A stretch of 64,000 nucleotides of DNA. Source: Paludisphaera soli. Lineage in GTDB: Bacteria; Planctomycetota; Planctomycetia; Isosphaerales; Isosphaeraceae. Made by a program: the position numbers and the translations under genes. Location: the NCBI RefSeq assembly GCF_011064595.1, contig NZ_JAALJI010000034.1, positions 1-64,000 of the forward strand. The letters are read 5' to 3'. The notes under the pieces are model-generated. The model saw only the letters and a program-made list of their open reading frames with translations. It had not been told where the DNA came from and did not search any database. Shown here one piece after another: positions 4,832-58,840 of this stretch; positions within the stretch are counted from its first letter, which is position 1, and every line of letters begins with the position of its first letter.

Positions 4832-5077
4832 GGCCGACTCCCCGGGCGACGCCCGTATCGGAAAGAGATCCAGAGGTCTTCCTCCCCGTTAGACGCACCA
4901 GCGTCCGGTTTCTGAGGAGCCGGTCCCCAGGATTCTCCGAATCTCCGTCGGCCGACTCGGGCGGACGAGGCCGCCCAGCTCCTTGAAGGATCACACCGAT
5001 TTCGCTAGGATGACCGACGCAGCGATTGAGACTCAGGTTCAACAAGGTTGGGTTCGGAGGCCGGCGGGAACCGCTTG

Positions 5078-6304: not shown

Positions 6305-6328
6305 ACCCCCCGCCTTCGGAGATCGAGA

Positions 6329-7285: not shown

Positions 7286-7334
7286 CGTCGAGATCGCGCG
7301 GTCCGGACCGCCGCCCGAGGCCCTCCTTCCCGGC

Positions 7335-7835: not shown

Positions 7836-8488
7836 GATGACGTCTTTCTTGTTTCCCGGGAAATCGGCGTGATCGACGCCGTTGGACGACGCGACATCGG
7901 ACGAGGCGAGCGAGGAGGCCGCGGTGGCCGGACGCGCACGCCCGTGGTTTCCGAAGGCTAGTGGACGAAGCGCCGCGACGATAGGAGGCAGGAGGATCCT
8001 AGCCCCTGAGGCGCTGCAGGGGAAGGATCGGGAGGGGGCCTTGGCCTGACGCTCCGGGACGAAGGAAGCCGCGGCCGAGCCCGCGACGGTCGTTTCCGAA
8101 CTGACAAAGGCCACCCGGTTTCGATCCAATCTCGGTAGGCGGTGATTGAGTCGGCTCTCCCGAAGCGAAAGGACGCCGCTCCAGGAGGTTGCAGCCATGG
8201 CCCAGGCCGTCCCACGCACGGCCGGCGATGGACGCGACCTTCTTCGTGCTCCGCACGGGGGGCCGGTGGAAAGCCCCGGACGCTGCCGGTCTCTGAACCA
8301 GCAGCTCGGCCCGCCGCCGCTTCCGGGAGTGGGCGGAAGTGGGCGTCTTCCAGGGGTGGAAGGCCGAATGCGAGCGGAAGAGGGCAGGACCCTGTCGGAT
8401 CGCCAGGCCGCTGGTTGGCCGAAGCGTCGATCGAGACCGCGACGGGCCACGCTCGCTTTTCCAGGAGTTCTCTTCGGCCGTGAATGAG
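7836..8488. other. Intergenic region, no gene seen
   Basis: About 650 bases between the SixA-type gene and the terminator hairpin. Several frames are open here simply because stop codons are rare at this GC content. None has a convincing start, ribosome site or recognisable protein pattern. The segment next to 7835 should contain the promoter for the SixA-type gene. Confidence 0.5.
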
Positions 8489-10438: not shown

Positions 10439-13400
10439 ATGTCCCTTTCCGTTTCCCGGCGGCGTCAGGGCGGCTCGTCACAGGCTCGTCGCGGAGGCTC
10501 TCGTGGCGACCGGGCCAGGGCCGCGGGCGGGTTCCGGCCGATCCTGCTCGATCTCGAGGATCGGACCCTGATGGCGACCTTGATCGTCACCAGCGTCGCG
10601 GACGCGGGCCCGGGGTCCTTGCGGGGCCAGATCGCGGCGGCGGCCGCGGGGGACGTGATCCGGTTCGACAACGCGCTCGTGGGCCGCACGATCACGCTCA
10701 CCACCGGCGAGCTGGTGATCTCCCGGGACGTGTCCATCATCGGCCCGGGGTCGAATCGCCTGACGATCAGCGCGGCGTTGAATTCGCGGGTGATCCTCGT
10801 CGCCCCCGCGCAGCCGGCGCCCGGGATCGCGGCGACCGCCCTGATCGACGTGACGATCGCCGGCCTGACGATCACCCAGGGGCGGGCGACGAGCAGCTCG
10901 CCGAACGGGAGTCGGGGGGGCGGCGTCTACGCCAGCTCGGCCGACCTGAGCCTGACCGACGTGATCCTCGTCGGCAACGAGGCCAAGGGCTCGCCCGGCT
11001 CGATCGGCGCCGCCGGGGCCAACGGGGTCGACGGGACCGACAGCACGCAAGGCAACGGGACGAACGGCACGAGCGGCGGGAGCGGGGGGGCGGGCGGCTC
11101 CGGCGGCCAGGCCTTCGGGGGCGGGATCTTCCTGACCGGGGGGGACCTCACGCTGACCGACAGCACCCTGGCGTCGAACGCCTCGTACGGCGGCCCGGGG
11201 GGCTCGGGCGGTGCCGGCGGCAACGGAGGCGCCGGGGGCGACGGCACCCTGAGCCTGACGACGGCCGGCGCGGGGGGCAACGGCGGCGACGCCGGCAACG
11301 GAGCCAACGCGGGCTCGGGCGGCTCCGGCGGCTCGGGATACGGCGGCGGCGTCTATTTCGCGGGCGGGTCCCTCACGGCGACCCGGACCCTGGTCACGTC
11401 GAACCTGGCGGTCGGCGGGCCGGGGGGCCACGGCGGGCTCGGCGGCGCGGGGGGCGCCGGGGGGGTCGGCTCGCTCTCCGCGAACATCGCCGACCGGAGC
11501 GGGAGCAGCCAGGGGGGCAACGGCGGCGACGCCGGCCGCGGCGGCAACGGGGGGTCCGGCGGCGCGGGCGGGTCGGGCCTCGGCGGCGGCATCTACGTCG
11601 CGAGCGGGAACCTGTCGGCGGCCGCGAGCATCATCTCGGCCGACCAGGCCCGGGGCGGGGCCGGCGGGCGCGGCGGGAACGCCGGCGCCGGCGGGGCCGG
11701 CGGATCGGGGACGCGGTTCGAGGTCGCCTTCTCGTTCGTCGTGAACACCCTGGCCGACCCGATCAACGGCGCGGGGGGCCACGGCGGCAACGGCGGGGCC
11801 GGCGGATCGGGGGGCGCCGGGGGCGCGGCGCTCGGCGGCGGGATCTTCTCGGCCGGCGGCAACGTCGTGATCGCGGGGTCGCAGATGACGGCGGACCAGG
11901 CCGTCGCCGGGGCCGGCGGCGCCGCGGGGTCCGGCGGGAACGCCGGGGCCGGCGGCGGCGGCTTTGACTTCTCGCTGACCGTGAACGTCACCGTGAACGT
12001 CGACATCAGCGTCGGGGCCGACGCCGAGCAGGTCTGCGACCTGCTGGTCGCGGCCAACGGCGTGCAGGAGGTCCGCAATCGGGAGACGGGCGAGATCTGC
12101 ACGGACTGCATCTCGGACTTCGACTTCTCCGTCCAGTCCGCGGACCGGAGCGGGAAGGGGGGCAACGGCGGGAGCGGCGGCGCGGGCGGGGCCGGTGGGG
12201 TCGGGGGCCGGGCCGAGGGCGGGGCCGTGTACGTCTCCAACAACGAGACGAGCGCGAACGTCGTCGCGATCAACGGCACGACGATCGCCACGGCCCAGGC
12301 GGTCGCGGGCGCGGGGGGCACCGCGGGGAACGCGGGTTCGGGCGCCGGCGGCGGTTTCGGGGCCCAGATCCTCGACACGATCACGGTCACGGTCGACGTG
12401 AACGTGGACATCACCGTGGTCGTGGAGTTCTGCCTCTTCGTGCCCGTCGGGACGAGCGTGGAGACCAAGGTCACCACCAACACGACGATCACCGACAACC
12501 CGATCATCAACGGCGTCGGCGGGATCGGCGGGGCCGCCGGGACGGGCGGTCGCGGCGGCGACGGCGGCGACGCCCGGGGCGGGGCGGTGTTCGCCTCGGG
12601 GCGGGGCGTCGGCTTCGTGAACAGCCAGATCAGCGGCTCGCAGGCCGTCGGCGGGTCGGGCGGCGGGGGCGGGGCCGGCGGCTCGGCGGCGAACGACGGG
12701 CTGACGATCCTGGCGTTCAAGACCCTCGCGGTCGGCAACGGCGGGGCGGGCGGCGTCGGCGGCGTCGGCGGCGACGCCTCGGGCGGCGGGCTCTACGTCG
12801 TGAGCGCGCCGCTCGTCGTATCGAACAGTACCATCGGCACGTCGTCGGCCCTGGCCGCCTCGGGGGGCTCCGGAGGTGCCGGCGGCGCCGGCAACTTCGC
12901 CGTCAACAGCAGCACCACGGCCGCCGACGGCGCGAGCGGCGGGGCCGGCGGCCGGGCCGCGGGGGGCGGGATCTACTACTCCGGGCCGCAGCTCGCGATC
13001 GGCGGGTCGACCCTGTCGAACGACGCGGCGGCCGGCGGGGCCGGCGGGGCCGGCGGGCAGGGGGGCTCGGGGGGCGTGGTGCTCCTCTTCGACGGCACCA
13101 CCCAGATCGCCCGCAACGGCGACGGCGGGCTCGGCGGCGCGGGCGGGGCCGGCCTCGGCGGCGGCCTCTTCAACGACGCCGCGGCCGCGACGGTCTCGGC
13201 CAGCACGTTCCAGGCGAACGCGGCGACCGGCGGGGCCGGCGGCGCGGGGGGCGGCGGGGGCGGCTTCGGCCTCCTGATCAACAGCTCGCCCGAGCCCGCC
13301 GCGATCAATCCGGGCGTCCAGGCGGGCGTCGGCGGGAACGGCGGCGTGGGCGGCCTCGGGGCCGGCGGCGGCATCTACAACGTCGCCAACTCCCGGCTGC

Positions 13401-16400
13401 CGGCGACGCTGGTGCTGTCCCTGCCGGTCTCGATGACCGGCAACGCCGCGACCGGCGGGGCCGGCGGCGCGGGGGGCGCCGGCGGCGCGCTCAACATCAA
13501 GGTGAACGCGGGGGCGGCGAACGGCTCCGACGGCGGCCTCGGCGGGGCCGGCGGCTCGGGGCTCGGGGGCGGGCTGTACAACCCCACGTCGCTCGTCACC
13601 TTCTCCACGGCGGTCGCCCCGGCGGCGACGGCTGCCGCGACCCCGGCGATCTTCACCCTCACCGGCAACCGCGCGACCGGCGGGGCCGGCGGCGCGGGGG
13701 GCTCGGCGAGCTTCCTCGGCGGCGTGGTCGTCGGCGCCTCGGCGAACGTCCTGGGGGCGACGGGGGGCCGGGGAGGCTCCGGCGGCGCGGGGCAGGGGGG
13801 CGGGATCTGGAACGCGCCCGGCAATTTCGCGTTGCCGGCCTCGTCCGTCGTGACGACCAACGCGGCGACCGGCGGGGCCGGCGGCGCGGGGGGAGGCGGC
13901 GGCACCCTGAGCAGCATCTCGACGAATCCTACGAATCAGGCCGCCGGGATCGTCGTCTCGGGCGGGTCCGGCGGGCTCGGCGGGCTCGGCGGCGCGGGCC
14001 AGGGGGGCGCGCTCTACAACACCGGGGCCAATCTCCAGATCTTGGCACTGAGCGGGGCGACCGGGAACACGGCGACCGGCGGCGCCGGCGGCGCGGGGGG
14101 GCTCGGCAGCCTGATCGGCAGCCTGCTGGGGACGCCCTTCGTCGTGGCGATCGGCGGGGCCGGCGGCGCGGGGAACCGCGGCGGCGACGGCTCGGGCGGA
14201 TTCGTCTTCAACACGGGCTCGGGAATGCTCGTCCAGTTGAGCGAGCTGAGCGGAAACTCGGCGACCGGCGGCGCCGGCGGCTCCGGCGGCGCGGGGAGCC
14301 TCGTGGCCAGCCTCATCAGCATCCCTTTCAGCAGCGGGATCGGGGGCGCCGGCGGGGCCGGCGGGGCCGGCGGGCACGGCTCGGGCGGCGCGGTCTTCAA
14401 CTCGGGGACCGGCCTGCGGATCGTCCAGAGCACCCTGGCGAACGACGCGGCGACCGGCGGGGCCGGCGGCGCGGGGGGGCTCGGCGGCACGGGCGCGATC
14501 ATCAACATGGGCGACATCCCCAACGGCTTCACGCTCGGCAGCGCCAACGCGGGCGCCGGCGGCGCGGGGGGGCGGGGAGGCGATGGCCGCGGCGGGGCGC
14601 TGTACAACACGGCGTCGGGCCTGGCGATCACGAACGGCCTGTTCACGGGAGATCGGGCCGCGGGCGGGGCCGGCGGCGGCGGCGGGCTCGGCGGCTTCGG
14701 GGGATCGATCGCCATCCTCGCGCAGTCCGGCAACGCCTCGGGCGGCAACGCGAACGGCGGACGGGGCGGGGCCGGCGGCGCCGGCGGCGACGGCCTCGGC
14801 GGCGCGATCTACAATACGTCTTCCGCCGCGGTCATCCTGAACAGCCCCCTGAATGCGAACTCGGTGATCGGCGGAGCCGGCGGGAGCGGCGGGCTCGGCG
14901 GCTTCGGGGGCTCGATCGGCGTCACGGCCTATCGCGGCAACGCGGCCGGCGGCTCCGCCCTCGGCGGCGACGGCGGCGACGGCGGGGCGGGCGGCGACGG
15001 CCTCGGCGGCGCCCTCTACAACACCGGCGCCAACCTGATCTACAACATCGCACCGCCGGCCGAGGGCATCCCCAGCCCGATCGGCCAGGCGACGCCCGGG
15101 GCGAAGTTCGACCCGGGCAACCTCAATTTCCTGATCGGAAACGCGGCGACCGGCGGGGCCGGCGGCGCGGGGGGCGCCGGCGGGGCCGGCGGGACGGTGG
15201 CCGTCCAGTCGTTCGTCGGGACGATCAGCCGGGGCTCGAGCGACGGCGGAGACGGCGGTGGCGGGGGGGCCGGCGGCGACGGCCTCGGCGGGGCGATCCA
15301 CAACACCGGGTCGACCTTCACGGTCTCGGCGTTCACCCCGCTCGGGGGGGCGCCGGCGGCGGGCCCTGGCGCGCTCGGGTCGTCGATCCTGCTGAACCTC
15401 CTGAACGCCAACACGGCGACCGGCGGGGCCGGCGGCGCGGGCGGCGGCGGGGGCAACGACGGCTCCCTGAGCTTCATCGGGACCGAGGCCAACGGCCCGG
15501 TCGGCGGCGACGGCGGCGACGGCGGATGGGGAGGAGCGGGCGCCGGCGGCGCGATCTACAATTCCGCCTCGTCCTTCGCCGTGCTGGGATTCAGCTCGCT
15601 GAGGACGACCGCGACGATCGATCTCGGCCCGCCGATCCTGCTCGCCCAGAGCCTGGCGTCCGGCCTGTCCTTCTCGGTCCAGTACAACGCGCTGGACGAC
15701 AACACGGCCCGAGGCGGCGCGGGGGGCGCCGGCGGGGCCGGCGGCGGCAACGGCGGGCTCAGCACCTCGGGCGGCAACGCCAACGGCAGCAACCGCCGCG
15801 GCGGGAGCGGCGGCGATGGCGGCGGCGGCGGTTACGCCGCCGGCGGGGCCGTCGAGAACTTCGGGTCCAACTTCACCGTCGCGGCGTTCAGCACGCTCGC
15901 GGGCTCGCGCGGCCCCAACAACAGCGCGCTCGCCACGCGGGCCGTCGCGGCGACCCCCAGCCCGCTCACGTTCCTCACGGTGGGGGTCCGCTCCCTCTCC
16001 GGGAACAAGGCGATCGGCGGGGCCGGCGGCGCGGGCGGTGCCGGCGGCGGCAACGGCGGGCTCACGGCGAGCCTCGGCAACGCCGACGGCGGCGTCGGCG
16101 GCGACGGCGGCTGGGGGGGGGACGGCGGCGACGCCTACGGCGGGGCCGTCGCCAACTCCGGCGCGAACTTCCTCTCGACGATCTTCAGCGCGACCCCGTG
16201 GTCCGGCGGCGGGGGCGCGAGCGTGCCCGCCGTCTCCAGCCCGCTCGTGCGGCTCTTCTCGCTGACGGTCAACGTCACCGACCTGTCCGACAATTCGGCC
16301 CAGGGAGGCGCGGGGGGCGTCGGCAGGGCCGGCGGCGGAAACGGCGGCGTCGCGGTTATCGGCCAGGCCCGAGGCGGGCGCGGCGGCGACGGCGGCGGCG

Positions 16401-19400
16401 GCGGCTGGGGCGGCGACGCCTACGGCGGGGCCGTCGACAACGACGGCGTGAACTTCCGCTCGCTCGTCTTCAGCGCGGTCGACGGCCGGTTCGACTCGCA
16501 GTCTTCGATCCAGAAGCTCTTCGTGGACTTCGCGACCTTGAACGTGCGCAACCTCTCCGGCGACTCCGCCGTGGGCGGGGCCGGCGGCGCGGGCGGGGCC
16601 GGCGGCGGCGACGGCGGCGTCTATCTGCAGAACCCCGGAACGCCCAACCCCGGCCCCCCGATCTCCCTCGACGTGCCGGGAGGCTTCGGCGGCCACGGCG
16701 GCGCGGGGGGATCCGGCGGCGACGCCTACGGCGGGGCGATCGACAACTCCGCCGACGGCTTCCTCATCGCGGTCTTCAGCACGGTGATGAACTCCTCGAA
16801 CGGGTCGAGCACCGCCGCGACGGTCGGGCCCGAGGTCTTTATGAGCGGGCTGACCGTCAACCTCACGACGCTGTCGGACGACTCGGCGATCGGCGGGGCC
16901 GGCGGGAACGGCGGCCTCGGCGGCGGCAACGGCGGCGTGACCCTGACCACGCTGCACGCCAACGGCGGGGTCGGCGGCGACGGCGGCGCGGGGGGCGACG
17001 GCGGCGACGCCGCGGGCGGTGCCGTGAACAACAGCGGCGACGGCTTCATCGTCGCCAAGTTCAGCACCCTGGCCGTGGCGGCCTACACCACGCCCCGGAT
17101 CAACATCTCGATCGGCACGGCGAACATCGTCATCCGCGAACTCTCCGGCGACAAGGCCGTGGGCGGGGCCGGCGGCGTCGGCGGCGGCGGCGGGGCCAAC
17201 GGCGGAGTGGGCGACGCCGACGGCGGGATCGGCGGCGACGGCGGCGCGGGCGGGGACGGCGGCGACGCCCTCGGCGGGGCCATCCGCAACGGCGGGCTCA
17301 GCCGGGAGGACGGCGAAGGGACCGGCGACTTCCCCGGCGGCGACGGCTTCACCATCGCCGACTTCAGCTCGATCACCATGGTCAAATCGGGCGGGGTGGT
17401 CGTGGCCGGACGGGTCGCCGCGACGCCGTACAGCCCGCTGTTCAACGTCTCGGTCGCCAACCTGACCATCGCCGACGCGAACCTCGTGAACGACCAGGCG
17501 ATCGGCGGGGCCGGCGGCGCCGGAGGGCTGGGCGGCGGCAACGGCGGCCAGAACCTGGGCGTCGGCAACTCGAACGGCGGCGTCGGCGGGGCCGGCGGCG
17601 CCGGAGGAGACGGCGGGGACGCGTCGGGCGGGGCGATCGACAACACGGGCGACGGCTTCGTGATCGCGAAGTTCAGCACCCTGAGCAACGCCTATCCGAC
17701 CGAATACGTCGGGGTCGCCAACGTGGTCCCGGTCTCCATCTATCAGCGGGTCAACATGAGCATCACCCTCGGGCTGCTCACCGACGACTCGGCGATCGGC
17801 GGGGCCGGCGGCGCCGGGGGCCTCGGCGGCGGCAACGGCGGGGTCACCGCCGGCAAGAACGTCAACGGCGGCACGGGGGGCGACGGCGGGGCGGCCGGCG
17901 ACGGCGGGTCGGCCCGCGGCGGCGCGATCCGCAACCATCCGGTGGTCGACCAGACGCCGCTGCGGATCGTGGTGGGCGACGTGGTCACGGCGGTCGCCAG
18001 CGGCAACCCCATCAACAGTTTCTACACGACCGTGTTCAACATCGCGGCGCGGTTCGACGCCCTGTCGCGCGACTCGGCGATCGGCGGGGCCGGCGGCAAG
18101 GGAGGTCAGGGCGGCGGCAACGGCGGCCAGACCGCCTCGGGCAACGCAAACGGCGGCATGGGCGGCAACGGCGGGGCCGGCGGCGACGGCGGCTCGGCGA
18201 CCGGGGGCGCCCTGGACAACACGGCCGCGAACTTCGTGATCCCGGCCTTCTACAAGCTGGTCGGCAACCGGGCGAACGGCGGCGCCGGCGGCGCCGGCGG
18301 CGACCACGGCGGCAAGGGGGGCTTCACCTTCTTCACCGGCTACAACGACCCCGGCGTCGGCGGGAACGGCGGCGACGGCGGCGACGGCGGCTCCGCGACC
18401 GGCGGGGCGATCTTCAACCAGGGAGCCGGGTTCTCGGTCGGGGCGCAGGCGGCGTTCACGAACGACCAGGCCAACGGCGGCGCGGGCGGCGCCGGCGGGG
18501 CGGGGGGCGCCTACTGCGGCGACTCCCGGATCCGCGGCGACGGCGGCGACGGCGGGAACGGCGGCGCGGCCGGAGGGGGCGCGATCGCCAACCAGGGCGA
18601 CGGCTTCACCCTGGCGGCCCCCAGCTCGTTCAGCAGCGACCGGGCCGTGGGCGGGGCCGGCGGGAACGGCGGCAACGGCGGGCCCTCGCCGCAGGGGGGG
18701 ACGAACGGCGGCGACGGCGGGGACGGCGGCGACGCCAGCGGCGGCGCCATCCTGAACGTCGCGCTCAACTTCAAGGCCACCACCGCCAGCTTCCTCTTCG
18801 ACGACGCGATCGGCGGCAACGCCGGCAACGGCGGCCGGGGCTTCGGCGCGGGCGTGGGCGGCGACGGCGGCGACGGCGGCGACGCGCTGGGCGGGTCGGT
18901 CGCCTCGCTGGGGTCGATCACTTTGGCGGAGGGCTCGATGTCGCTCGGCAACGCCAACGCCGGCAACGGCGGCTCCGGCTGGACCGGGGGGGCGGGCGGC
19001 TCGGCGATCGGCGGCGGCATCCTCGCGGCCGGCGGGCTCCGCCAGGGGGGCGGCCTGAGCCTGAGCAAGTTCACGGTCACCTTCACCGCGGCCCGAGGAG
19101 GCGCGGGGGGAGCCGGCACGATCAAGGCCGGCGGGGCCGGCGGGGCCGCGGCCGGCGGGGGCGTGGCCATCCTCTCGGGCGTGGCGACGATCGACGCCTC
19201 GTCCCTGGGCAACAACCAGGCGCTCGGCGGCTCCGGGGGGAGCGGCGGGGCGGGGATGGCCGGCGGCGCCGGCGGCTCCGCGACCGGCGGCGGCCTGGCC
19301 TCGGCCGGGACGACCACGGTCACCGGGACCACCGTCTCCGGGAACGTCGCGCAGGGGGGCAACGGCGGCGGCGCGGCCACCGGCGGGACCGGCGGCGCGG

Positions 19401-19807
19401 GCGGCGACGCCCTCGGCGGCGGCATCGGGGTCGCCGGCGGCAGGCTGACGTTCAAGGGGGGCTCGGTCGTGTCGAACACGGCCCGGGGGGGCAATGGCGG
19501 GAGCGCGGCCTTCAAGGGCGTCGGCGGCGCGGGGGGCAACGGCTACGGCGGCGGCGTGCACGTCTCCGGGGTCGCCGCGGTCGACCTGATCGACGCGGCC
19601 ATCGGCGCGTTCTTCGCCGGCAACCAGGCGATCGGCGGCTCGGCCGGCTCCGGGGGCTTGCTGGGCGTGAACGGCGCCGGCGGCAAGGGCGTCGGCGGGG
19701 GCCTGTTCCTGACCGTCGCAGGGTCGACGAAGAAGAACACGACGGTCGCCTTCAACGCGGCGTCCACGAGCGACAACGACATCCACGGTCCCATCACCAA
19801 CCTGTGA
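10439..19807 (+). CDS. Giant Gly/Ala-rich repeat surface protein, 3,122 aa, LEPR-XLL-type N-terminus
   Basis: The start ATG has AAGGAG 8 nt upstream. Residues 1-36 are basic and Gly-rich, then LLDLEDRTLMA matches the LEPR-XLL-type N-terminal motif of giant planctomycete proteins. VTSVADAGPGSLRGQI and the next 120 residues look like the start of a right-handed beta-helix (CSLREA-like). From about residue 150 to 3,050 the protein is built of dozens of modules in which NGGxGGAGGxGG runs alternate with short beta-type segments. Early modules carry GGGIYxASG-like pieces; later ones carry GGAIxNxGxxFxVxxFSTL and DDSAIGGAGGAGG. The composition resembles mycobacterial PE-PGRS and polyglycine-II adhesins. 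No transmembrane or PEP-CTERM tail is seen; it ends in a small non-Gly segment (VAFNAASTSDNDIHG). A surface adhesin or matrix protein is inferred. Confidence 0.85.
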   Translation: MSLSVSRRRQGGSSQARRGGSRGDRARAAGGFRPILLDLEDRTLMATLIVTSVADAGPGSLRGQIAAAAAGDVIRFDNALVGRTITLTTGELVISRDVSIIGPGSNRLTISAALNSRVILVAPAQPAPGIAATALIDVTIAGLTITQGRATSSSPNGSRGGGVYASSADLSLTDVILVGNEAKGSPGSIGAAGANGVDGTDSTQGNGTNGTSGGSGGAGGSGGQAFGGGIFLTGGDLTLTDSTLASNASYGGPGGSGGAGGNGGAGGDGTLSLTTAGAGGNGGDAGNGANAGSGGSGGSGYGGGVYFAGGSLTATRTLVTSNLAVGGPGGHGGLGGAGGAGGVGSLSANIADRSGSSQGGNGGDAGRGGNGGSGGAGGSGLGGGIYVASGNLSAAASIISADQARGGAGGRGGNAGAGGAGGSGTRFEVAFSFVVNTLADPINGAGGHGGNGGAGGSGGAGGAALGGGIFSAGGNVVIAGSQMTADQAVAGAGGAAGSGGNAGAGGGGFDFSLTVNVTVNVDISVGADAEQVCDLLVAANGVQEVRNRETGEICTDCISDFDFSVQSADRSGKGGNGGSGGAGGAGGVGGRAEGGAVYVSNNETSANVVAINGTTIATAQAVAGAGGTAGNAGSGAGGGFGAQILDTITVTVDVNVDITVVVEFCLFVPVGTSVETKVTTNTTITDNPIINGVGGIGGAAGTGGRGGDGGDARGGAVFASGRGVGFVNSQISGSQAVGGSGGGGGAGGSAANDGLTILAFKTLAVGNGGAGGVGGVGGDASGGGLYVVSAPLVVSNSTIGTSSALAASGGSGGAGGAGNFAVNSSTTAADGASGGAGGRAAGGGIYYSGPQLAIGGSTLSNDAAAGGAGGAGGQGGSGGVVLLFDGTTQIARNGDGGLGGAGGAGLGGGLFNDAAAATVSASTFQANAATGGAGGAGGGGGGFGLLINSSPEPAAINPGVQAGVGGNGGVGGLGAGGGIYNVANSRLPATLVLSLPVSMTGNAATGGAGGAGGAGGALNIKVNAGAANGSDGGLGGAGGSGLGGGLYNPTSLVTFSTAVAPAATAAATPAIFTLTGNRATGGAGGAGGSASFLGGVVVGASANVLGATGGRGGSGGAGQGGGIWNAPGNFALPASSVVTTNAATGGAGGAGGGGGTLSSISTNPTNQAAGIVVSGGSGGLGGLGGAGQGGALYNTGANLQILALSGATGNTATGGAGGAGGLGSLIGSLLGTPFVVAIGGAGGAGNRGGDGSGGFVFNTGSGMLVQLSELSGNSATGGAGGSGGAGSLVASLISIPFSSGIGGAGGAGGAGGHGSGGAVFNSGTGLRIVQSTLANDAATGGAGGAGGLGGTGAIINMGDIPNGFTLGSANAGAGGAGGRGGDGRGGALYNTASGLAITNGLFTGDRAAGGAGGGGGLGGFGGSIAILAQSGNASGGNANGGRGGAGGAGGDGLGGAIYNTSSAAVILNSPLNANSVIGGAGGSGGLGGFGGSIGVTAYRGNAAGGSALGGDGGDGGAGGDGLGGALYNTGANLIYNIAPPAEGIPSPIGQATPGAKFDPGNLNFLIGNAATGGAGGAGGAGGAGGTVAVQSFVGTISRGSSDGGDGGGGGAGGDGLGGAIHNTGSTFTVSAFTPLGGAPAAGPGALGSSILLNLLNANTATGGAGGAGGGGGNDGSLSFIGTEANGPVGGDGGDGGWGGAGAGGAIYNSASSFAVLGFSSLRTTATIDLGPPILLAQSLASGLSFSVQYNALDDNTARGGAGGAGGAGGGNGGLSTSGGNANGSNRRGGSGGDGGGGGYAAGGAVENFGSNFTVAAFSTLAGSRGPNNSALATRAVAATPSPLTFLTVGVRSLSGNKAIGGAGGAGGAGGGNGGLTASLGNADGGVGGDGGWGGDGGDAYGGAVANSGANFLSTIFSATPWSGGGGASVPAVSSPLVRLFSLTVNVTDLSDNSAQGGAGGVGRAGGGNGGVAVIGQARGGRGGDGGGGGWGGDAYGGAVDNDGVNFRSLVFSAVDGRFDSQSSIQKLFVDFATLNVRNLSGDSAVGGAGGAGGAGGGDGGVYLQNPGTPNPGPPISLDVPGGFGGHGGAGGSGGDAYGGAIDNSADGFLIAVFSTVMNSSNGSSTAATVGPEVFMSGLTVNLTTLSDDSAIGGAGGNGGLGGGNGGVTLTTLHANGGVGGDGGAGGDGGDAAGGAVNNSGDGFIVAKFSTLAVAAYTTPRINISIGTANIVIRELSGDKAVGGAGGVGGGGGANGGVGDADGGIGGDGGAGGDGGDALGGAIRNGGLSREDGEGTGDFPGGDGFTIADFSSITMVKSGGVVVAGRVAATPYSPLFNVSVANLTIADANLVNDQAIGGAGGAGGLGGGNGGQNLGVGNSNGGVGGAGGAGGDGGDASGGAIDNTGDGFVIAKFSTLSNAYPTEYVGVANVVPVSIYQRVNMSITLGLLTDDSAIGGAGGAGGLGGGNGGVTAGKNVNGGTGGDGGAAGDGGSARGGAIRNHPVVDQTPLRIVVGDVVTAVASGNPINSFYTTVFNIAARFDALSRDSAIGGAGGKGGQGGGNGGQTASGNANGGMGGNGGAGGDGGSATGGALDNTAANFVIPAFYKLVGNRANGGAGGAGGDHGGKGGFTFFTGYNDPGVGGNGGDGGDGGSATGGAIFNQGAGFSVGAQAAFTNDQANGGAGGAGGAGGAYCGDSRIRGDGGDGGNGGAAGGGAIANQGDGFTLAAPSSFSSDRAVGGAGGNGGNGGPSPQGGTNGGDGGDGGDASGGAILNVALNFKATTASFLFDDAIGGNAGNGGRGFGAGVGGDGGDGGDALGGSVASLGSITLAEGSMSLGNANAGNGGSGWTGGAGGSAIGGGILAAGGLRQGGGLSLSKFTVTFTAARGGAGGAGTIKAGGAGGAAAGGGVAILSGVATIDASSLGNNQALGGSGGSGGAGMAGGAGGSATGGGLASAGTTTVTGTTVSGNVAQGGNGGGAATGGTGGAGGDALGGGIGVAGGRLTFKGGSVVSNTARGGNGGSAAFKGVGGAGGNGYGGGVHVSGVAAVDLIDAAIGAFFAGNQAIGGSAGSGGLLGVNGAGGKGVGGGLFLTVAGSTKKNTTVAFNAASTSDNDIHGPITNL
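11080..19720 (+). repeat. Coding tandem-repeat region of the giant protein
   Basis: The DNA is a long series of GGCGGGGCCGGCGGCGCGGGG-like blocks encoding GGAGGAGG, interspersed with unique stretches of 60-200 bp. The blocks are imperfect but similar enough to allow recombination and misassembly. Copy number in the chromosome should be treated with caution. Confidence 0.75.
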
Positions 19808-52677: not shown

Positions 52678-53156
52678 GCCGAGGGAGGCCCCCCGCATCC
52701 CAGTCGACGGCTAGCCAGGGTGGTGCGGCGCCCGCGGGCTCGGGCTTCGCTGCAACCGGCGACTGCGCGCCGCGGTGCCTCCCGTCGTCGGGCGCGGACC
52801 CCGCGACGACCGGACGAGTCTCACAGGCTGCACGTCCGTCGTCCCGCCGCATCGCGAGCGGCGCGACGGATGGGACCCTGCAGGATTGCCAGGAAAGGCC
52901 GAAACTCGATCCGCGTCGGCGAGTTAAGCCGGCGTTCCGGTCGGCTTGCTCGCCCTGGCTCGACGTGGATCGCACGATTCCCACATGGCATGATGGAAGG
53001 AGCCTCGCGGACTGGGAGAGGCTGCCTGTGCAAGGCTTTACAGCCTCCGACAGTCCGTATACCATAAAAGCCGACAAATCTCAGGCGACGAGTCCCGCCG
53101 CGATTCCGTTCTCGTGTGACGAATCCGAAACCCCACGCCGAAAACGAGGTCCCGTC
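52678..53156. other. Intergenic region upstream of the WXG100-like/FtsK locus
   Basis: About 480 bases with no supportable gene. Open frames here lack starts with ribosome sites. The right part (53030-53110) is A/T-richer and is the likely control region of the secretion-like locus. Confidence 0.5.
53037..53063 (+). promoter_or_regulatory. Candidate promoter of the WXG100-like/FtsK locus
   Basis: TTTACA (53037-53042) is followed after 15 nt by TATACC (53058-53063), in the only A/T-rich patch upstream of 53157. The spacing is shorter than the ideal 17 nt; CATAAA at 53064-53069 is an alternative -10 with long spacing. Motif match only. Confidence 0.3.
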
Positions 53157-53429
53157 ATGGCCCAGGCCATCGCGAATCCCGAGGAGATCCGCCGCTTCGC
53201 CGCGCGGTTGAAGCAATTCAACAACGACCTTCTCACGCAGCTGGGCGCGATCCACGGCCAGGTCTCGGGCCTGGGCCAGACGTGGCGCGACCGCGAGCAC
53301 GACAAGTTCGTCGAGGAGTTCGACCAGACGCTCCAGGTGGTCAAGCGGTTCGTCGACGTGACCAATCAGCACATCCCGTTCCTGCTCCGCAAGGCCGAGC
53401 GCCTCGAAGAGTACCTCCAGCAGCGCTGA
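53157..53429 (+). CDS. WXG100-like small helical protein, 90 aa
   Basis: The ATG has GAGGT 6 nt upstream. The product is a 90-residue helical hairpin with the WXG100 size and shape. Around the turn it has W43-R-D followed by F51 (WRDREHDKF) in place of the canonical W-x-G, and a long amphipathic second helix (DQTLQVVKRFVDVTNQHIPFLL). There is no signal peptide. WXG100 proteins are substrates or structural partners of type VII secretion ATPases. Its position as first gene of a set ending in an FtsK/SpoIIIE-type membrane ATPase supports that role. Distant relatives in Gram-negative-type bacteria are poorly studied. Confidence 0.78.
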   Translation: MAQAIANPEEIRRFAARLKQFNNDLLTQLGAIHGQVSGLGQTWRDREHDKFVEEFDQTLQVVKRFVDVTNQHIPFLLRKAERLEEYLQQR

Positions 53430-53532
53430 GCCGAGCCGATCGGGGCCGATCCGTCGGCGGGCCGGGCCGTGACCGGAGCCCGCCGCATCCCGGCCCCTCC
53501 TCCTCCCTCTTCGCCGCGCAGGAGCCAGCATC

Positions 53533-54174
53533 ATGAGCCAGGACGCGAGAGTCCTTTCGGTCCAAGCCCTGAGGGACTTCAAGGTCTCGATGATCAAGTT
53601 CGTCGAGGAGGCGCGCGGCGCCCTCTCGGGGGTCGACATGGAGCTGCGGCGGATGCGCGACTGGCTGGAGCGCGACCAGCTCGGCTACTGGACGACCCAG
53701 GTCAAGAAGCGGCAGGAAGCCCTCATGAACGCCCGGTCCGACCTGGCCAAGCGGCACATCGCCGCCCAGGGGAACAGCTCGATCTCGGACACCGACCAGA
53801 AGGAAGCCGTCCGCCTCGCCCAGAAGCGGCTCCACATCGCCGAGGAGAAGGTGCAGGTCGTCAAGCGGCTGATCCCGGTCCTGCACCACGCGATCGCCGA
53901 CTACAAGTCGTGCGCCTCGCCGATGACCGACCACCTCTCGGGCGGCATGGAGAAGTCCATGGGCACGCTGGAGAAGATGGTCCGCTCGCTGGAGGACTAC
54001 CTGGCCCTCCAGGCCCCGACCACCGGGCGGCTGGACCCCGTCGGCGGCGCGGCCCGCTCCGCCGAGGGCACGACCGCCTCCTCCGGCTCGGCCGCCCCCG
54101 CGGCGTCCGCCGACGCCCCGACCCCGGCGGCGACGCCCGAGCCCGCCGAGGCCCCCGCCGCCGCCGACCGCTGA
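53533..54174 (+). CDS. Coiled-coil protein with Ala/Pro-rich tail, type VII-like locus
   Basis: The product is 213 residues. Residues 1-160 are almost entirely helical with heptad-like spacing (VKKRQEALMNARSDLAKRHIAA, QKEAVRLAQKRLHIAEEKVQVV), and the last 50 are a disordered Ala/Pro/Glu tail. A MRDWLERDQLGYW segment near residue 42 places Trp residues at a helix turn. There is no signal peptide or membrane span. It lies between the two small WXG100-like genes and is presumably a longer helical partner, comparable in outline to LXG or EspB-like substrates, though no motif proves this. Confidence 0.75.
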   Translation: MSQDARVLSVQALRDFKVSMIKFVEEARGALSGVDMELRRMRDWLERDQLGYWTTQVKKRQEALMNARSDLAKRHIAAQGNSSISDTDQKEAVRLAQKRLHIAEEKVQVVKRLIPVLHHAIADYKSCASPMTDHLSGGMEKSMGTLEKMVRSLEDYLALQAPTTGRLDPVGGAARSAEGTTASSGSAAPAASADAPTPAATPEPAEAPAAADR

Positions 54175-54274
54175 CCCGACCCGATTCGATTCGACCCAAC
54201 GCGACCACCGCCCGACCGACCGTCCCCGCCCGCGTTCGGCGTCCGACCGCTTGCGGGGGGAGGAGGCCCCGACC

Positions 54275-54490
54275 ATGAGCAGCCATTCCGCCCGCCTTCA
54301 GCACGCGATGAAGGACCTGCGCGAGAAGTGGGACGTCACCAAGGAGGCCTGGACCGACCAGGTCGCCAAGGACTTCGAGAAGAACCACCTCGACCCGGTC
54401 GAGGGCCTGGCCAGGCGGGCCATGATCGGCATGGACAAGCTCGCGGAAGAGCTGGCCAAGATCCGCAAGGCCTGCGACGAGAACGCCTGA
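54275..54490 (+). CDS. Second WXG100-like small helical protein, 71 aa
   Basis: The ATG has GGAGGAGG about 8 nt upstream, which favours it over the in-frame start at 54251. The product is a very short helical protein with W26-T-D and F34 (WTDQVAKDF), the same W-x-D-x5-F pattern as the 90-residue protein at 53157. A second amphipathic helix follows (MDKLAEELAKIRKA). It is 104 bp before the FtsK-type gene. The shared motif and location suggest it forms a hairpin or dimer with the first protein and is handled by the same ATPase. Confidence 0.75.
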   Translation: MSSHSARLQHAMKDLREKWDVTKEAWTDQVAKDFEKNHLDPVEGLARRAMIGMDKLAEELAKIRKACDENA

Positions 54491-54594
54491 ACGGCCTCGC
54501 CCGGCCGCCCGGTCGGTCCGGCCGCCGCGCGTCGCGACGAGGCGCGCGCCGTCCCCTTGATCCTGCCCACTCCCGAACACCGGATATCGCGAAC

Positions 54595-57500
54595 ATGCCC
54601 GAGTCACCGCTGGTCCAGAAAGAAGTCGCCGCGCTGACCGACCTGGAGGGCCTGATCGCCCGAAGGGCCAAGGTCGAGACGGAAGTCGAGCAGACCTTCA
54701 AGCGGCGTCGCGACCGCGAGGAGCAGGAGCACCGGCAGGCCGTCCAGGAGTTCTCGACGCGGACCAAGGCCGAGGCGGCGGCCCTCCAGGCCGAGTACGA
54801 CAAGGTCCGCGCCGCGATCGCGCGCAAGGCCCAGGCCGACGCGCAGGCGACCGAGGCCGAATACGCGCAGGTCAAGCAGAAGCTGGAGGCCCAGTTCAAG
54901 TCCGAGCGGGCCAAGGCGAAGAAGGCCAGCGACGAGTCGCGCTGGCAGTCGCTGGCGATGTACGAGGCCGCCCGCGACAATACGGTGAAGCGGAAGAAGG
55001 TCCACGACGAGGCCCTGGTCGCCACCCGGGCCGACCTGGAACACCTGACGGAAGCCGCCGAGGTCGCGCTGGCCCGCGTCGCCCGGCTCGCCGGGCCCGC
55101 GTTCGAGGTCGAGCCCACGACCACCATCACCCCCCCCGCGGCCCCCGAAGGCCCGGCCGCCGACGGCGCGGAGCTTCTGGCCCCCCCCGAGCCCAAGGGG
55201 GACCCCACCAAGCTCGACCTGCTCCAGGAGGTCGTCCACAAGATCGACGAGGAGCTGCTGGCCCTCGAATCGCTCAAGCTCCCCAACTTCCTGCGGCCGT
55301 CCAACTTCGTCTGGCCGTTCCTGCTCCTGGGCGCGGCGGTCGGCGGCGGCCTGGCGATGGTCGTCGCCCCGGCCATCGCCGCGGGCGCGGGGGTCGCCGC
55401 CGCGGTGCTCGTCGGCGCGGGGGCGTTCGTCGCCCTCAAGAAGAAGGCCCAGCCCCAGGTCTCGCGGCACTACCACACCCTCAAGTACCGCGTGGAGGAG
55501 GGGACGCGGCTGCTCGAAGAGGCCAAGGAGTGGATCAAGGTCGACTTCGAGGACCGCCAGAAGCAGGCCGACGCCAAGCGCGAGGAGAACTACAAGGCCG
55601 CCGAGGACAAGATGAACGCCCGCGTGGCCGAGGCCGAGCGGCGGATCGGCCAGTCGGTCGTCGAGGCCGACGCGATCTTCCCCAACCGCCTCGCCGAGAT
55701 CAAGCAGAAGCGCGACGACGACCTGAAGAAGGCCGACTCCCACTACCCCCCCCGGATCCAGGCCCATAAGGAGAAGACCGAGCGCGAGGGCGCCGAGCTC
55801 CAGGAGCGGATCCGCAAGGAGAAGGAGGCCACCAAGGCCGCCTACGACGCCGCCTGGGCCGAGCTGGTCCAGACCTGGACCGAGGGCCTCGCCCGCGTCG
55901 GCGCGATCGCCGACGAGGTCAACGCCGAGGCCTCCCGGCGGTTCCTGGACTGGGACGACAAGTCCGACGTCGACGGCTGGCAGCCCCCCGAAGAGGTCCC
56001 CGCGGCCTTGCCCTTCGGCCGCTTCAAGTTCGACCTGTCCGAGTTCCCCCACGGCCGGCCGACCGACGACCGCCTCAAGCAGGCCGGGCCCACCGAGTTC
56101 GACCTGCCCGCCTTCGTCCCGTTCCCCTACCAGAGCAGCGTCCTCATCAAGACCGGCGAGTCCGGCCGGGCCGAGGCCAACCGGCTCCTCCAGAGCCTCA
56201 TGCTCCGGTTCCTGACCTCGATCCCCCCCGGCAAGGTCCGGTTCACCATCTTCGACCCCGTCGGCCTCGGCGAGAACTTCGCCGCCTTCATGCACCTGGC
56301 CGACTACCAGGAACTCCTCGTCACCAGCCGCATCTGGACCGAGGCCCGCGACTTCGACCAGCGCCTGGAGGACCTCTCCGCCCACATGGAGAACGTCATC
56401 CAGAAATACCTGCGCAACGAGTTCGAGACCATCGAGGCGTACAACCAGCACGCCGGCGAGGTCGCCGAGCCGTTCCGCATCCTGGTCGTCGCCAACTTCC
56501 CCAGCAACTTCAACGAGACCGCCGCCCGCCGGCTCCAGAGCATCGTCTCCAGCGGCGCCCGCTGCGGCGTCTACGCCTTGATCTCGGTCGACCCCAAGCT
56601 GCCGATGCCCTCCGGGCTCCAGCTCAAGGACCTGGAGGCCGACTGCATCAACCTGAGCTGGCGCGACGGCAAGATGGGCTGGCGCGACGACCACTTCGGC
56701 CGCTTCCCGCTCCAGCTCGACTCGCTCCCCGAATCCGGCTTCTACAGCAAGCTCATGCACTACATGGGCGAGGCGTCCAAGAACGCCAACAAGGTCGAGG
56801 TCCCGTTCGACTTCATCGCCCCCAAGCCGGACAAGTTCTGGAGCTGGGACAGCGGCAAGATCATGGAGGTCCCCCTGGGCCGCGCCGGGGCCACCAAGCT
56901 CCAGCCGCTGTTGCTGGGCCGGGGGACCTCGCAGCACGCCCTCGTCGCCGGCAAGACGGGCTCCGGCAAGTCGACCCTGCTCCACGCCCTGATCGTGAAT
57001 GCGGCGCTGCGGTACAGCCCGGACCAGTTGGAGCTGTACCTGATCGACTTCAAGAAGGGCGTCGAGTTCAAGGTCTACGCCGAGAAGGAGCTGCCGCACG
57101 CCAAGGTCATCGCCGTCGAGTCCGAGCGCGAGTTCGGCCTCAGCGTCCTCCAGCGGCTCGACGCCGAACTGAAGTACCGCGGCGACCTCTACCGCGACTT
57201 CGGCGCTCAGGACCTGAAGGGCTTCCGCGAGGCCAAGCCCGACATGGTCATGCCCCGCATCCTGCTGGTCGTCGACGAGTTCCAGGAGTTCTTCGTCGAG
57301 GACGACAAGATCGCGCAGGAGGTCTCGCTGCTGCTCGACCGCCTGGTCCGCCAGGGTCGTGCGTTCGGCGTCCACGTCATCCTGGGCTCGCAGACGCTCG
57401 GCGGCGCCTACTCGGTCGGCCGGGCGACCCTCGGCCAGATGGCCATCCGCATCGCCCTGCAATGCTCCGAGGCCGACGCCCACCTGATCCTCAGCGAGGA

Positions 57501-58800
57501 CAACAGCGCCGCCAGGCTCCTCACCCGCCCCGGCGAGGCGATCTACAACGACGCCAACGGCATGCCCGAGGGCAACAACCTCTTCCAGGTCGTCTGGCTT
57601 TCCGACAAGCGCCGGATCGAGTACCTCCAGGACATGCTGGACCTCGCCAAGGCCCAGAACCGGCCGCCGGCCACCCCCATCGTGTTCGAAGGCAACCTGC
57701 CGGCCGACACCCGCAAGAACACCCTGCTCAACCACCTGTTCGACGCGACCGAGTGGCCGGCCGAGGCCCCGCGCTACGAGCAGGCCTGGCTGGGCGACGC
57801 CATCGCCATCAAGGACCCGACGGTCGCCGTCTTCCGGCCCCAGTCGGGCGCCAACCTCCTGATCATCGGCCAGGGGGGCGAGTCCGCGCTGGCGATGATG
57901 CTGATGTCCGGCATCGCCATCGCCGCCCAGCACCCGCCCAAGAAGCGGACGGGCGTGAAGTTCTACATGGTCGACGGCTCGCCGGTCGACTCGTGGCTGG
58001 CGGGCAAGCTCGGCCAGTTCGCCGACTGGGTACCTCACAACGTCACCAACGTCACCCAGCGCAACCTGGCCTCGTCGATCAACGCGATCGCCCGCGAGCT
58101 GGACCGCCGCCGCGACAACCCGGACGCCGACGCCCACGCGCCGATCTACCTGTTCATCTACGACCTCCAGCGCTTCCGCGAGCTTCGCAAGGCGGACGAC
58201 GACTTCGGCTACTCCTCCAGCTTCGGCGAGGAGAAGCCGCCGTCGCCCGGCAAGCAGTTCGGCGACATCCTCCGCGAAGGCCCGAGCTTCGGCGTGCACA
58301 CGATCGTCTGGATCGACAGCGTCAACAACATGAACCGGATGTTCGACCGCGGCACCCTCCGCGAGTTCGAACTCCGGATCCTGTTCCAGATGAGCGCCAA
58401 CGACTCCAGCACCGTGATCGACTCCCCCGCCGCCGGCAAGCTCGGCGAGAACCGGGCCCTCTTCTACAGCGAGGAAGAGAATCGGGTGGAGAAGTTCCGC
58501 CCCTACAGCCTCCCCGACGCCGCGTGGGTCGAGGAGGTGAAGGCCAAGTTCACCTCCCGCCCCGCCCCCTTCGAGCCCGAGGCCCCGCCCGAGCCGGAGC
58601 CTTCCGACGAGCCCGCTCCCGCACCCCGCGAGAACGGCTCGCGGAGCCGGTACGACGACGGCCCGCCGCCGTTCCCCAAGTTCGACGACGGCGACATCCC
58701 GCCGTTCCCGAAGTTCGACGAGATCGAGGTGCCGCCGTTCCCCAAGTTCGACGACCTTGGCGACGCCCCCTCCGAAGAACCCAGGCCCGACGAGTCCTGA
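54595..58800 (+). CDS. FtsK/SpoIIIE-type membrane ATPase of a type VII-like locus, 1,401 aa
   Basis: Residues 1-170 form a charged coiled coil, about 240-285 hold two membrane spans (FVWPFLLLGAAVGGGLAMVVA, then AAAVLVGAGAFVAL), and about 295-470 a second coiled coil. Three P-loop-like domains follow: the first at about 500-720 with a broken site (KTGESGRAE), the second at about 760-1,030 with intact Walker A GKTGSGKST (K792) and Walker B LLVVDEFQEFF (D894, E895), and the third at about 1,070-1,330 with GQGGESA and IYDLQ in place of functional motifs. This is the three-ATPase layout of EccC/EssC, the type VII secretion motor. The tail repeats PPFPKFD three times. A strong terminator follows. 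Confidence 0.88.
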   Translation: MPESPLVQKEVAALTDLEGLIARRAKVETEVEQTFKRRRDREEQEHRQAVQEFSTRTKAEAAALQAEYDKVRAAIARKAQADAQATEAEYAQVKQKLEAQFKSERAKAKKASDESRWQSLAMYEAARDNTVKRKKVHDEALVATRADLEHLTEAAEVALARVARLAGPAFEVEPTTTITPPAAPEGPAADGAELLAPPEPKGDPTKLDLLQEVVHKIDEELLALESLKLPNFLRPSNFVWPFLLLGAAVGGGLAMVVAPAIAAGAGVAAAVLVGAGAFVALKKKAQPQVSRHYHTLKYRVEEGTRLLEEAKEWIKVDFEDRQKQADAKREENYKAAEDKMNARVAEAERRIGQSVVEADAIFPNRLAEIKQKRDDDLKKADSHYPPRIQAHKEKTEREGAELQERIRKEKEATKAAYDAAWAELVQTWTEGLARVGAIADEVNAEASRRFLDWDDKSDVDGWQPPEEVPAALPFGRFKFDLSEFPHGRPTDDRLKQAGPTEFDLPAFVPFPYQSSVLIKTGESGRAEANRLLQSLMLRFLTSIPPGKVRFTIFDPVGLGENFAAFMHLADYQELLVTSRIWTEARDFDQRLEDLSAHMENVIQKYLRNEFETIEAYNQHAGEVAEPFRILVVANFPSNFNETAARRLQSIVSSGARCGVYALISVDPKLPMPSGLQLKDLEADCINLSWRDGKMGWRDDHFGRFPLQLDSLPESGFYSKLMHYMGEASKNANKVEVPFDFIAPKPDKFWSWDSGKIMEVPLGRAGATKLQPLLLGRGTSQHALVAGKTGSGKSTLLHALIVNAALRYSPDQLELYLIDFKKGVEFKVYAEKELPHAKVIAVESEREFGLSVLQRLDAELKYRGDLYRDFGAQDLKGFREAKPDMVMPRILLVVDEFQEFFVEDDKIAQEVSLLLDRLVRQGRAFGVHVILGSQTLGGAYSVGRATLGQMAIRIALQCSEADAHLILSEDNSAARLLTRPGEAIYNDANGMPEGNNLFQVVWLSDKRRIEYLQDMLDLAKAQNRPPATPIVFEGNLPADTRKNTLLNHLFDATEWPAEAPRYEQAWLGDAIAIKDPTVAVFRPQSGANLLIIGQGGESALAMMLMSGIAIAAQHPPKKRTGVKFYMVDGSPVDSWLAGKLGQFADWVPHNVTNVTQRNLASSINAIARELDRRRDNPDADAHAPIYLFIYDLQRFRELRKADDDFGYSSSFGEEKPPSPGKQFGDILREGPSFGVHTIVWIDSVNNMNRMFDRGTLREFELRILFQMSANDSSTVIDSPAAGKLGENRALFYSEEENRVEKFRPYSLPDAAWVEEVKAKFTSRPAPFEPEAPPEPEPSDEPAPAPRENGSRSRYDDGPPPFPKFDDGDIPPFPKFDEIEVPPFPKFDDLGDAPSEEPRPDES

Positions 58801-58809
58801 TGACCCGCA

Positions 58810-58840
58810 ACGCCCGAGGGCCGACCCTCGGGCGTTTTTC
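58810..58840 (+). terminator. Rho-independent terminator of the FtsK locus
   Basis: A perfect 11-bp stem, ACGCCCGAGGG with CCCTCGGGCGT, closes a CCGA loop and is followed by TTTTTC. It begins 10 bp after the FtsK-type stop codon. Confidence 0.93.

What the first reader, a model, noticed from the sequence alone, without database searches (positions are those of the whole stretch)
53157..58800. A minimal type VII secretion-like locus in a planctomycete
Seen: two WXG100-size helical proteins, a coiled-coil protein and a membrane FtsK/SpoIIIE-type ATPase with three P-loop-like domains, all in one direction and closed by a strong terminator. Known: type VII systems of Actinobacteria and Firmicutes pair WXG100 proteins with an EccC/EssC ATPase but also need EccB/D/E or EsaA/EssA/EssB. 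None of these is present. Inference: a reduced or different WXG100-handling machine in a Gram-negative-type envelope.
Basis: partly seen in the sequence, partly recalled or inferred. Interest (0 to 1): 0.8.

Follow-up and report, generated by a model that had tools for sequence, protein, structure and literature searches.

The report
Planctomycete WXG100 protein with motor ATPase
Four neighbouring genes encode small hairpin proteins and a membrane-anchored motor enzyme distantly related to the tuberculosis-type protein export machine; many planctomycetes inherit the motor and hairpin genes together even when the genes have moved apart, but what they move is unknown.

Summary
Window 53157-58800 encodes, on one strand, a 90-aa WXG100-superfamily protein (PF06013 above cut-off; W-R-D instead of W-x-G), a 213-aa predicted helical hairpin, a 71-aa WXG100-like protein with W-x-D, and a 1401-aa apparently membrane-anchored FtsK/EccC-type ATPase, then a terminator. 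Only the central of three ATPase domains keeps Walker A and B.

It is not a canonical type VII system. EccB and EssB are absent from the genome, EccC scores fall far below cut-off, and the YxxxD/E export motif is absent (0/54). The kind is already in print: Zhang 2012 noted solo WXG proteins with a three-domain, middle-active ATPase in planctomycetes; Bell 2024 described the cassette in CoCoNuT loci.

New here: the planctomycete version carries a hydrophobic anchor and is inherited like core genes. In 294 sampled genomes the ATPase occurs in 41 and the WXG100 gene in 40, all among those 41, one copy each, including 11 where the two are far apart or on different contigs. The WXG100 gene is present in 41 of 45 genomes of the order.

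Most likely an ATP-driven machine that acts on or exports its hairpin partners. Export itself is inferred.

The parts
53037..53065 (+). sigma-70-like promoter candidate upstream of the WXG100 gene (weak)
   Evidence: 9 of 12 matches, 1 found vs 0.2 expected
53157..53429 (+). WXG100-superfamily protein P0002, 90 aa, W43-R-D45, conserved C-terminal PFLxRKAxRxxEYLxQR
   Evidence: PF06013 34.8 bits over cut-off; best solved relative HP0062 E 7e-11; conservation
53533..54174 (+). P0003, 213 aa, long antiparallel helical hairpin (helices 8-78 and 87-158) with a disordered tail
   Evidence: AlphaFold2 model, mean pLDDT 85.9; family of 78 members, Y156 99% conserved
54275..54490 (+). P0004, 71 aa, second WXG100-like protein, invariant W26-x-D28
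   Evidence: cross-match to the P0002 profile above shuffled controls
54595..58800 (+). P0005, 1401-aa FtsK/EccC-type ATPase
   Evidence: FtsK_SpoIIIE 112.8 bits; EccCa 102.7 bits; PDB 4nh0 EccC E 8e-31
55357..55413 (+). hydrophobic segment (residues 255-273) between two charged helical stretches of P0005, predicted membrane anchor
   Evidence: Kyte-Doolittle 2.27 over 19 residues; 102 of 107 relatives have one to three such segments in the N-terminal part
55957..56799 (+). degenerate ATPase domain D1 (about residues 455-735)
   Evidence: no Walker A/B across 107 relatives; domain fold in model
56806..57609 (+). active ATPase domain D2 (about residues 738-1005)
56950..56976 (+). Walker A GKTGSGKST of D2
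   Evidence: 93-100% conserved at eight of nine positions, K787 74%
57262..57279 (+). Walker B LLVVDE of D2
   Evidence: D and E 98% conserved
57772..58569 (+). degenerate ATPase domain D3 (about residues 1060-1325)
   Evidence: no Walker motifs; fold
58666..58755 (+). C-terminal PPFPKFD repeats of the ATPase, peculiar to this species and its closest relative
   Evidence: tandem repeat; motif found in 2 of 107 ATPases
58809..58836 (+). intrinsic terminator
   Evidence: 12-bp stem with T-rich tail

Best explanation
A four-gene, membrane-anchored WXG100/ATPase machine of the 'solo WXG' type. The ATPase sits in the inner membrane by a short hydrophobic hairpin between two coiled coils, is expected to form a hexamer, and has one working motor domain (D2) flanked by two dead domains (D1, D3). 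The WXG100 protein P0002, alone or paired with P0004, docks on a dead domain by its conserved C-terminal tail, as EsxB docks on EccC ATPase3, and switches the motor on. The motor then threads the hairpin proteins (P0002/P0004 and the long hairpin P0003), or a client bound to them, across the inner membrane. Shown: gene content, domain anatomy, motif conservation, strict co-inheritance. Inferred: hexamer, docking, direction and cargo.
For: WXG100 identity. Three-domain EccC-like architecture: 4nh0 is the best Foldseek hit, E 4.8e-32, over the whole model, and sequence profiles score far higher for EccC/EssC than for FtsK. Only D2 is active. Hydrophobic anchor in 102 of 107 relatives. Four-gene order conserved and no other widely recurring neighbour. 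ATPase and WXG100 co-inherited: 40 genomes with both, 1 ATPase only, 0 WXG100 only, 253 neither, including 11 genomes where they are far apart or on different contigs. The hairpin family was found in 15 of 17 ATPase-bearing genomes searched and in 0 of 3 without the ATPase. P0002 is the most constrained component against both near relatives, dN/dS 0.13-0.16.
Against: No transport was measured. No pore-forming partner (EccB/D/E-like or EssB-like) is linked, and EccB and EssB are absent. The T7SS signal YxxxD/E is missing from P0002 (0/54). The active domain is structurally as close to the FtsK DNA motor. No larger protein carrying this WXG100 domain was found in the genome, so no dedicated cargo family is visible.
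Confidence: 0.5

Rival explanations
1. An intracellular stress or anti-invader module. The ATPase is a remodelling motor controlled by WXG100 sensors, as proposed around TerY-P and CoCoNuT loci; nothing is exported.
For: The ATPase groups with plasmid-borne ATPases next to TerY-P (vWA, PP2C, kinase) and CARF genes, TerD genes, or Hsp70/GrpE genes (support 93/94). The P0002 profile finds WXG100 proteins in several of those loci. PADLOC's SspH and mads_8 models match the ATPase domain.
Against: No vWA, kinase or nuclease gene recurs near the planctomycete loci. The WXG100 gene is single-copy and present in 41 of 45 genomes of the order. Distribution is coherent within genera and the genes are co-retained when dispersed, unlike typical mobile defence islands.
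Confidence: 0.25
2. A DNA translocase accessory to FtsK, used for chromosome movement in FtsZ-less budding cells.
For: The D2 fold matches FtsK motor domains best (Z 31.8, 276 residues, rmsd 2.5). The planctomycete Planctopirus limnophila is FtsZ-less and buds (PMC6952346).
Against: A normal FtsK is encoded separately. Sequence profiles favour EccC/EssC (102.7 vs 25.4 bits; 109.7 vs 42.1 bits). Two extra degenerate domains in EccC/EssC arrangement. Full-length relatives are absent from 253 of 294 genomes of the phylum.
Confidence: 0.13
3. A true type VII secretion system whose remaining components are encoded elsewhere in the genome.
For: WXG100 and EccC-like ATPase present. A YukD-family protein exists elsewhere in the genome.
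Against: EccB and EssB absent. The YukD-like gene lies beside E2 and ThiF/E1 genes. EccC/EssC cut-offs are missed widely. No YxxxD/E.
Confidence: 0.07

Closest known systems
Solo WXG domains with a YueA-like ATPase of three HerA/FtsK domains, only the middle active (Zhang et al. 2012, PMC3482391, table footnote)
   Same: Same two core parts, same active-site pattern, planctomycetes named explicitly
   Different: Described there as mobile; here single-copy, coherent within genera and strictly co-inherited. The membrane anchor, long hairpin and second WXG100-like protein are not mentioned in the passage read.
EssC-like ATPase cassette of type III-A CoCoNuT / TerY-P loci (Bell et al. 2024, PMC11090510)
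   Same: Three ATPase domains with only the central active, N-terminal coiled coil, two WXG100 proteins (one without WxG), separate coiled-coil protein
   Different: No TerY-P, CARF or nuclease partners here; the coiled-coil protein lacks a nuclease domain; the ATPase has a hydrophobic anchor whereas theirs is reported to lack transmembrane domains
Helicobacter pylori HP0062 / HP0066 WXG100-FtsK pair (PMC4978471, PMC3397514; PDB 3fx7)
   Same: HP0062 is the closest solved relative of P0002, with the same W-R-D bend, and is encoded near an FtsK/SpoIIIE-domain gene in a Gram-negative cell
   Different: HP0066 itself was not compared here; gene set and order differ
Type VII secretion systems T7SSa-j (PMC11217815)
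   Same: WXG100 protein plus EccC/EssC-related ATPase
   Different: T7SSa-j are reported from Gram-positive phyla, with further components and, for T7SSc-j, ATPases of four predicted NTPase domains; here three domains, one active, no linked T7SS membrane partners and no YxxxD/E signal

Membership tests
WXG100 superfamily (P0002) | Match to PF06013 above the gathering score | tested here: met
   34.8 vs 27.3 bits
WXG100 superfamily (P0002) | W-x-G motif in the hairpin bend | tested here: not met
   W-x-D in all relatives aligned, W-R-D in 95%; HP0062 shows the same variant (PMC3397514). Hence called a superfamily homologue, not a typical member
WXG100 superfamily (P0002) | Helical hairpin that dimerises | tested here: inconclusive
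   End-to-end profile match to the solved hairpins HP0062 and EsxB; P0002 itself was not modelled and dimerisation was not tested
WXG100 superfamily (P0004) | Match to a WXG100 model above the gathering score | tested here: not met
   WXG100_2 15.9 vs 27 bits; relationship suggested only by cross-profile scores
Type VII secretion system | EccC/EssC ATPase above the curated cut-off | tested here: not met
   EccCa 102.7 vs 509, EssC 94.6 vs 778, EccCb 86.4 vs 347 bits
Type VII secretion system | WXG100 protein TsxA/EsxA | tested here: met
   with the motif caveat above
Type VII secretion system | EccB (T7SSa) or EssB/YukC (T7SSb) | tested here: not met
   No match in the whole genome
Type VII secretion system | EsaB/YukD-type ubiquitin-like protein belonging to the system | tested here: inconclusive
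   One YukD-family protein at 54.3 bits on another contig, beside E2 and ThiF genes
Type VII secretion system | C-terminal YxxxD/E signal | tested here: not met
   0 of 54 P0002, 1 of 78 P0003, 2 of 81 P0004 homologues in the last 30 residues
Type VII secretion system | Secretion of the WXG100 protein | not testable with these tools
   needs cell fractionation
Solo-WXG / three-domain ATPase system (Zhang 2012, Bell 2024) | Three FtsK/HerA domains, only the middle one active | tested here: met
Solo-WXG / three-domain ATPase system (Zhang 2012, Bell 2024) | Accompanying solo WXG100 protein | tested here: met
   One per genome, co-inherited with the ATPase
Solo-WXG / three-domain ATPase system (Zhang 2012, Bell 2024) | ATPases form one group apart from EccC/EssC and FtsK | tested here: inconclusive
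   Grouped at 93/94 support, below the starred level, with long branches
CoCoNuT / TerY-P cassette (Bell 2024) | Linked TerY-like VWA genes, nuclease-fused coiled coil, ATPase without transmembrane segment | tested here: not met
   No such recurring neighbours; hydrophobic anchor in 102 of 107; P0003 is a bare hairpin
FtsK/SpoIIIE DNA translocase | Match to the FtsK model above the curated cut-off | tested here: not met
   25.4 vs 1566 bits
FtsK/SpoIIIE DNA translocase | FtsK-type motor fold | tested here: met
   Z 31.8 over 276 residues; fold shared with the EccC/EssC motors

The most novel reading that the evidence does not exclude
A vertically inherited WXG100 export machine of a Gram-negative-type (diderm) phylum that works with only a membrane-anchored one-motor ATPase and its hairpin partners, without the EccB/D/E or EsaA/EssA/EssB membrane complex. 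It would be a core physiological system rather than a weapon.
Probability: 0.3. Interest if true: 0.75.

Novelty: new variant of a known kind. Interest (0 to 1): 0.48.

Why it matters
WXG100 export is studied mainly in Actinobacteria and Firmicutes, and the solo-WXG ATPases have been noted mostly as mobile accessories of defence loci. Here the pair is co-inherited across at least a dozen families in one phylum, even when the genes are far apart, and the WXG100 gene is single-copy and conserved across an order. That makes a direct test possible in culturable planctomycetes: what does an EccC-like motor do with one WXG100 partner and no T7SS pore? An answer would bear on the minimal type VII motor and on where the system came from.

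Tried and rejected
Canonical T7SS membership: rejected on absent EccB/EssB, cut-offs and signal motif. A second WXG100 protein elsewhere in the genome: the weak PF06013 hit on contig C113 falls in a helical ExbB/MotA-like protein, and the family model finds only the one gene. The YukD hit as an unlinked T7SS part: set aside because it sits beside E2 and ThiF genes. Fold search with P0003 gave only generic coiled coils, no match with E <= 0.001. P0003 as an elongated WXG100 paralogue: profile comparison weak; scores exceed shuffles, but shuffling destroys heptad patterns, so left open. P0002-P0004 homology by hhalign is only 30.7% probability. PADLOC defence hits match only the shared ATPase domain. 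A first phylum search failed and was repeated. Anantharaman et al. 2012 was not held. No planctomycete-specific paper on this system turned up in the searches made.

Full report
WHAT IS THERE. The window is a stretch of contig C126 of an 8.0 Mb genome. The relatives kept by the genome-contig scan (80 of 255) carry planctomycete names, apart from one record titled only 'bacterium'. Four genes run in one direction: P0002 (53157-53429, 90 aa), P0003 (53533-54174, 213 aa), P0004 (54275-54490, 71 aa) and P0005 (54595-58800, 1401 aa), followed by a 12-bp stem terminator at 58809-58836.

THE SMALL PROTEINS. P0002 passes the Pfam WXG100 gathering score (34.8 vs 27.3 bits). Its family is strongly conserved: W43-R-D45-x-E47, F51, L76 and a C-terminal PFLxRKAxRxxEYLxQR, with 50 of 54 members ending in QR. 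The best solved relative is H. pylori HP0062 (3fx7, E 7e-11), then EsxB and EsxA proteins. HP0062 has the same W-R-D in the bend and lies near an FtsK/SpoIIIE-domain gene (PMC3397514). P0004 has an invariant W-x-D. It misses the Pfam cut-off, but the clean P0002 profile scores above 10 bits on 21 of 81 P0004 homologues and on none of the shuffled copies. P0003 is modelled as a long helical hairpin (8-78, 87-158), pLDDT about 97 in the helices, with a disordered tail. Its structural matches are generic coiled coils.

THE ATPASE. Sequence profiles place it nearest to EccC/EssC (EccCa 102.7, EssC 94.6, EccCb 86.4 bits) and well away from FtsK (25.4 bits), though far below every curated cut-off. 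PDB sequence search agrees (EccC 4nh0 109.7 bits, FtsK 42.1 bits). In 107 relatives only the central domain has Walker A and B. The AlphaFold2 model of residues 455-1330 (pLDDT 87.9) matches three-domain EccC best in Foldseek (E 4.8e-32). The second look by VIA-align gives the central domain Z 31.8 to FtsK over 276 residues, against Z 28.9 to EssC over 491 and 27.4-27.8 to EccC, so the fold of the active domain alone does not tell a protein motor from a DNA motor. A hydrophobic stretch near residues 255-273 lies between two charged helical stretches; 102 of 107 relatives have one to three such segments in the N-terminal part. This is a Kyte-Doolittle estimate only.

CONSERVED UNIT. Iterated profiles show the order WXG100, hairpin, small protein, ATPase in dozens of planctomycete loci. 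Because the iteration let the two small-protein profiles cross-match, the independent check was made. All-against-all comparison of flanking genes finds these genes in 54-81 loci and nothing else in more than 14, apart from opposite-strand reading frames of the same genes. The window's genome has a second, paralogous locus (hairpin, small protein, ATPase P0006 at 46% identity over 1124 aligned positions) without the first WXG100 gene.

CO-INHERITANCE. In an evenly drawn sample of 294 genomes of the phylum, full-length or nearly full-length ATPase relatives occur in 41. I took matches with E of 2.7e-34 or better as this family; the next match is 8.9e-18, in the range of ordinary FtsK, so there is a clear gap. 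The WXG100 model, run on the same sample, finds 40 genomes with one copy each. All 40 are among the 41; the exception, G219, is a fragmented assembly. The 2x2 table is 40/1/0/253, Fisher p about 1e-48; the p-value ignores shared ancestry, but the 41 genomes fall in more than a dozen families. In 26 of 37 genomes whose positions I compared the two are neighbours; in 11 they are on different contigs or far apart. In G024, a single chromosome, the ATPase is at 5.92 Mb, the WXG100 gene at 2.50 Mb and the hairpin gene at 4.30 Mb. The hairpin family was found in 15 of 17 ATPase-bearing genomes searched and in none of three without it. Of 16 genomes whose ATPase locus lacked adjacent small genes, 15 have the WXG100 gene elsewhere. 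Within the order, 41 of 45 genomes have the WXG100 gene, always single-copy. P0002 is the most constrained of the four proteins against two close relatives, dN/dS 0.13 and 0.16.

RELATIVES OUTSIDE PLANCTOMYCETES. Plasmid searches found three-domain relatives in Caballeronia, Rhodococcus, Deinococcus and Helicobacter. The Caballeronia locus has a WXG100 gene, a coiled-coil gene, a small gene and the ATPase between TerY-like VWA, CARF, PP2C and kinase genes. The P0002 profile recognises small proteins in the Caballeronia, Helicobacter, Rhodococcus L121 and Deinococcus loci. In a tree of active domains these ATPases group with the planctomycete ones (93/94) apart from EccC/EssC and from FtsK/SspH; several branches are long and the grouping is not at the starred level. 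Those ATPases show no strong hydrophobic segment (maximum 1.4-1.7), but the Deinococcus and one Rhodococcus locus have a separate small protein with a C-terminal one.

WHAT IS KNOWN. Zhang et al. [quoted passage not shown] Bell et al. 2024 (PMC11090510) describe the same cassette in CoCoNuT loci, with an N-terminal coiled coil, two WXG100 proteins and no transmembrane domain, and cite Anantharaman et al. 2012 for stand-alone copies. The H. pylori pan-genome paper calls WxG plus FtsK a minimal type VII set (PMC4978471). The system type is therefore not new. What this work adds is the anchor, the long hairpin as a co-inherited partner, and the evidence that in planctomycetes the pair is inherited like core genes, not like a mobile element.

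MECHANISM. Most likely the hairpin proteins engage a degenerate domain of a membrane-anchored motor, as a signal-sequence peptide engages EccC in structure 4n1a (listed; that it is the EsxB signal on ATPase3 is from general knowledge), and the single active domain drives their movement or that of a bound client across the inner membrane. Gene content, domain state and co-inheritance are shown. Membrane insertion is predicted. Oligomer, docking and transport are inferred. The main rivals are a cytoplasmic stress or defence motor and a DNA translocase.

LIMITS. The topology estimate is crude. P0002 and P0004 were not modelled. Paper coverage is open-licence only. Absence of EccD/EccE, EsaA and EssA was not tested genome-wide; only EccB, EssB and YukD were.

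Noticed in passing
window 10439-19807 (+): A 3122-aa open frame, very rich in GGAGGxGG repeats, in a stretch of 74-78% G+C; no Pfam match. It looks superficially like glycine-rich PGRS proteins; the opposite strand is also open for 3102 codons.
   Followed up: partly
L127 (contig C134) about 4200-7937: A YukD-type ubiquitin-like gene followed by an E2-like (UQ_con), a ThiF/E1-like and an apparent JAB-peptidase gene: a bacterial ubiquitin-like conjugation operon.
   Followed up: partly
L008 5413-10257: Second copy of hairpin, small protein and ATPase in the same genome, without its own typical WXG100 gene; similar WXG100-less loci occur in several other Isosphaeraceae.
   Followed up: partly
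L148 4863-5888, L149 8583-9608, L152 6400-7407: A DnaJ-type gene lies near the unlinked WXG100 gene in three genomes, divergent and within about 600 bp in two. One plasmid relative (L124) has Hsp70 and GrpE genes beside the ATPase, and a DnaK homologue is listed with a WXG100 gene in H. pylori (PMC4978471).
   Followed up: no
window 58666-58755: A 33-bp tandem repeat encoding PPFPKFD repeats at the ATPase C-terminus; the motif is found only here and in the closest relative (L011).
   Followed up: partly
P0004 homologues, residue 67 of the window protein: A cysteine near the C-terminus is 88% conserved, without an obvious role.
   Followed up: no
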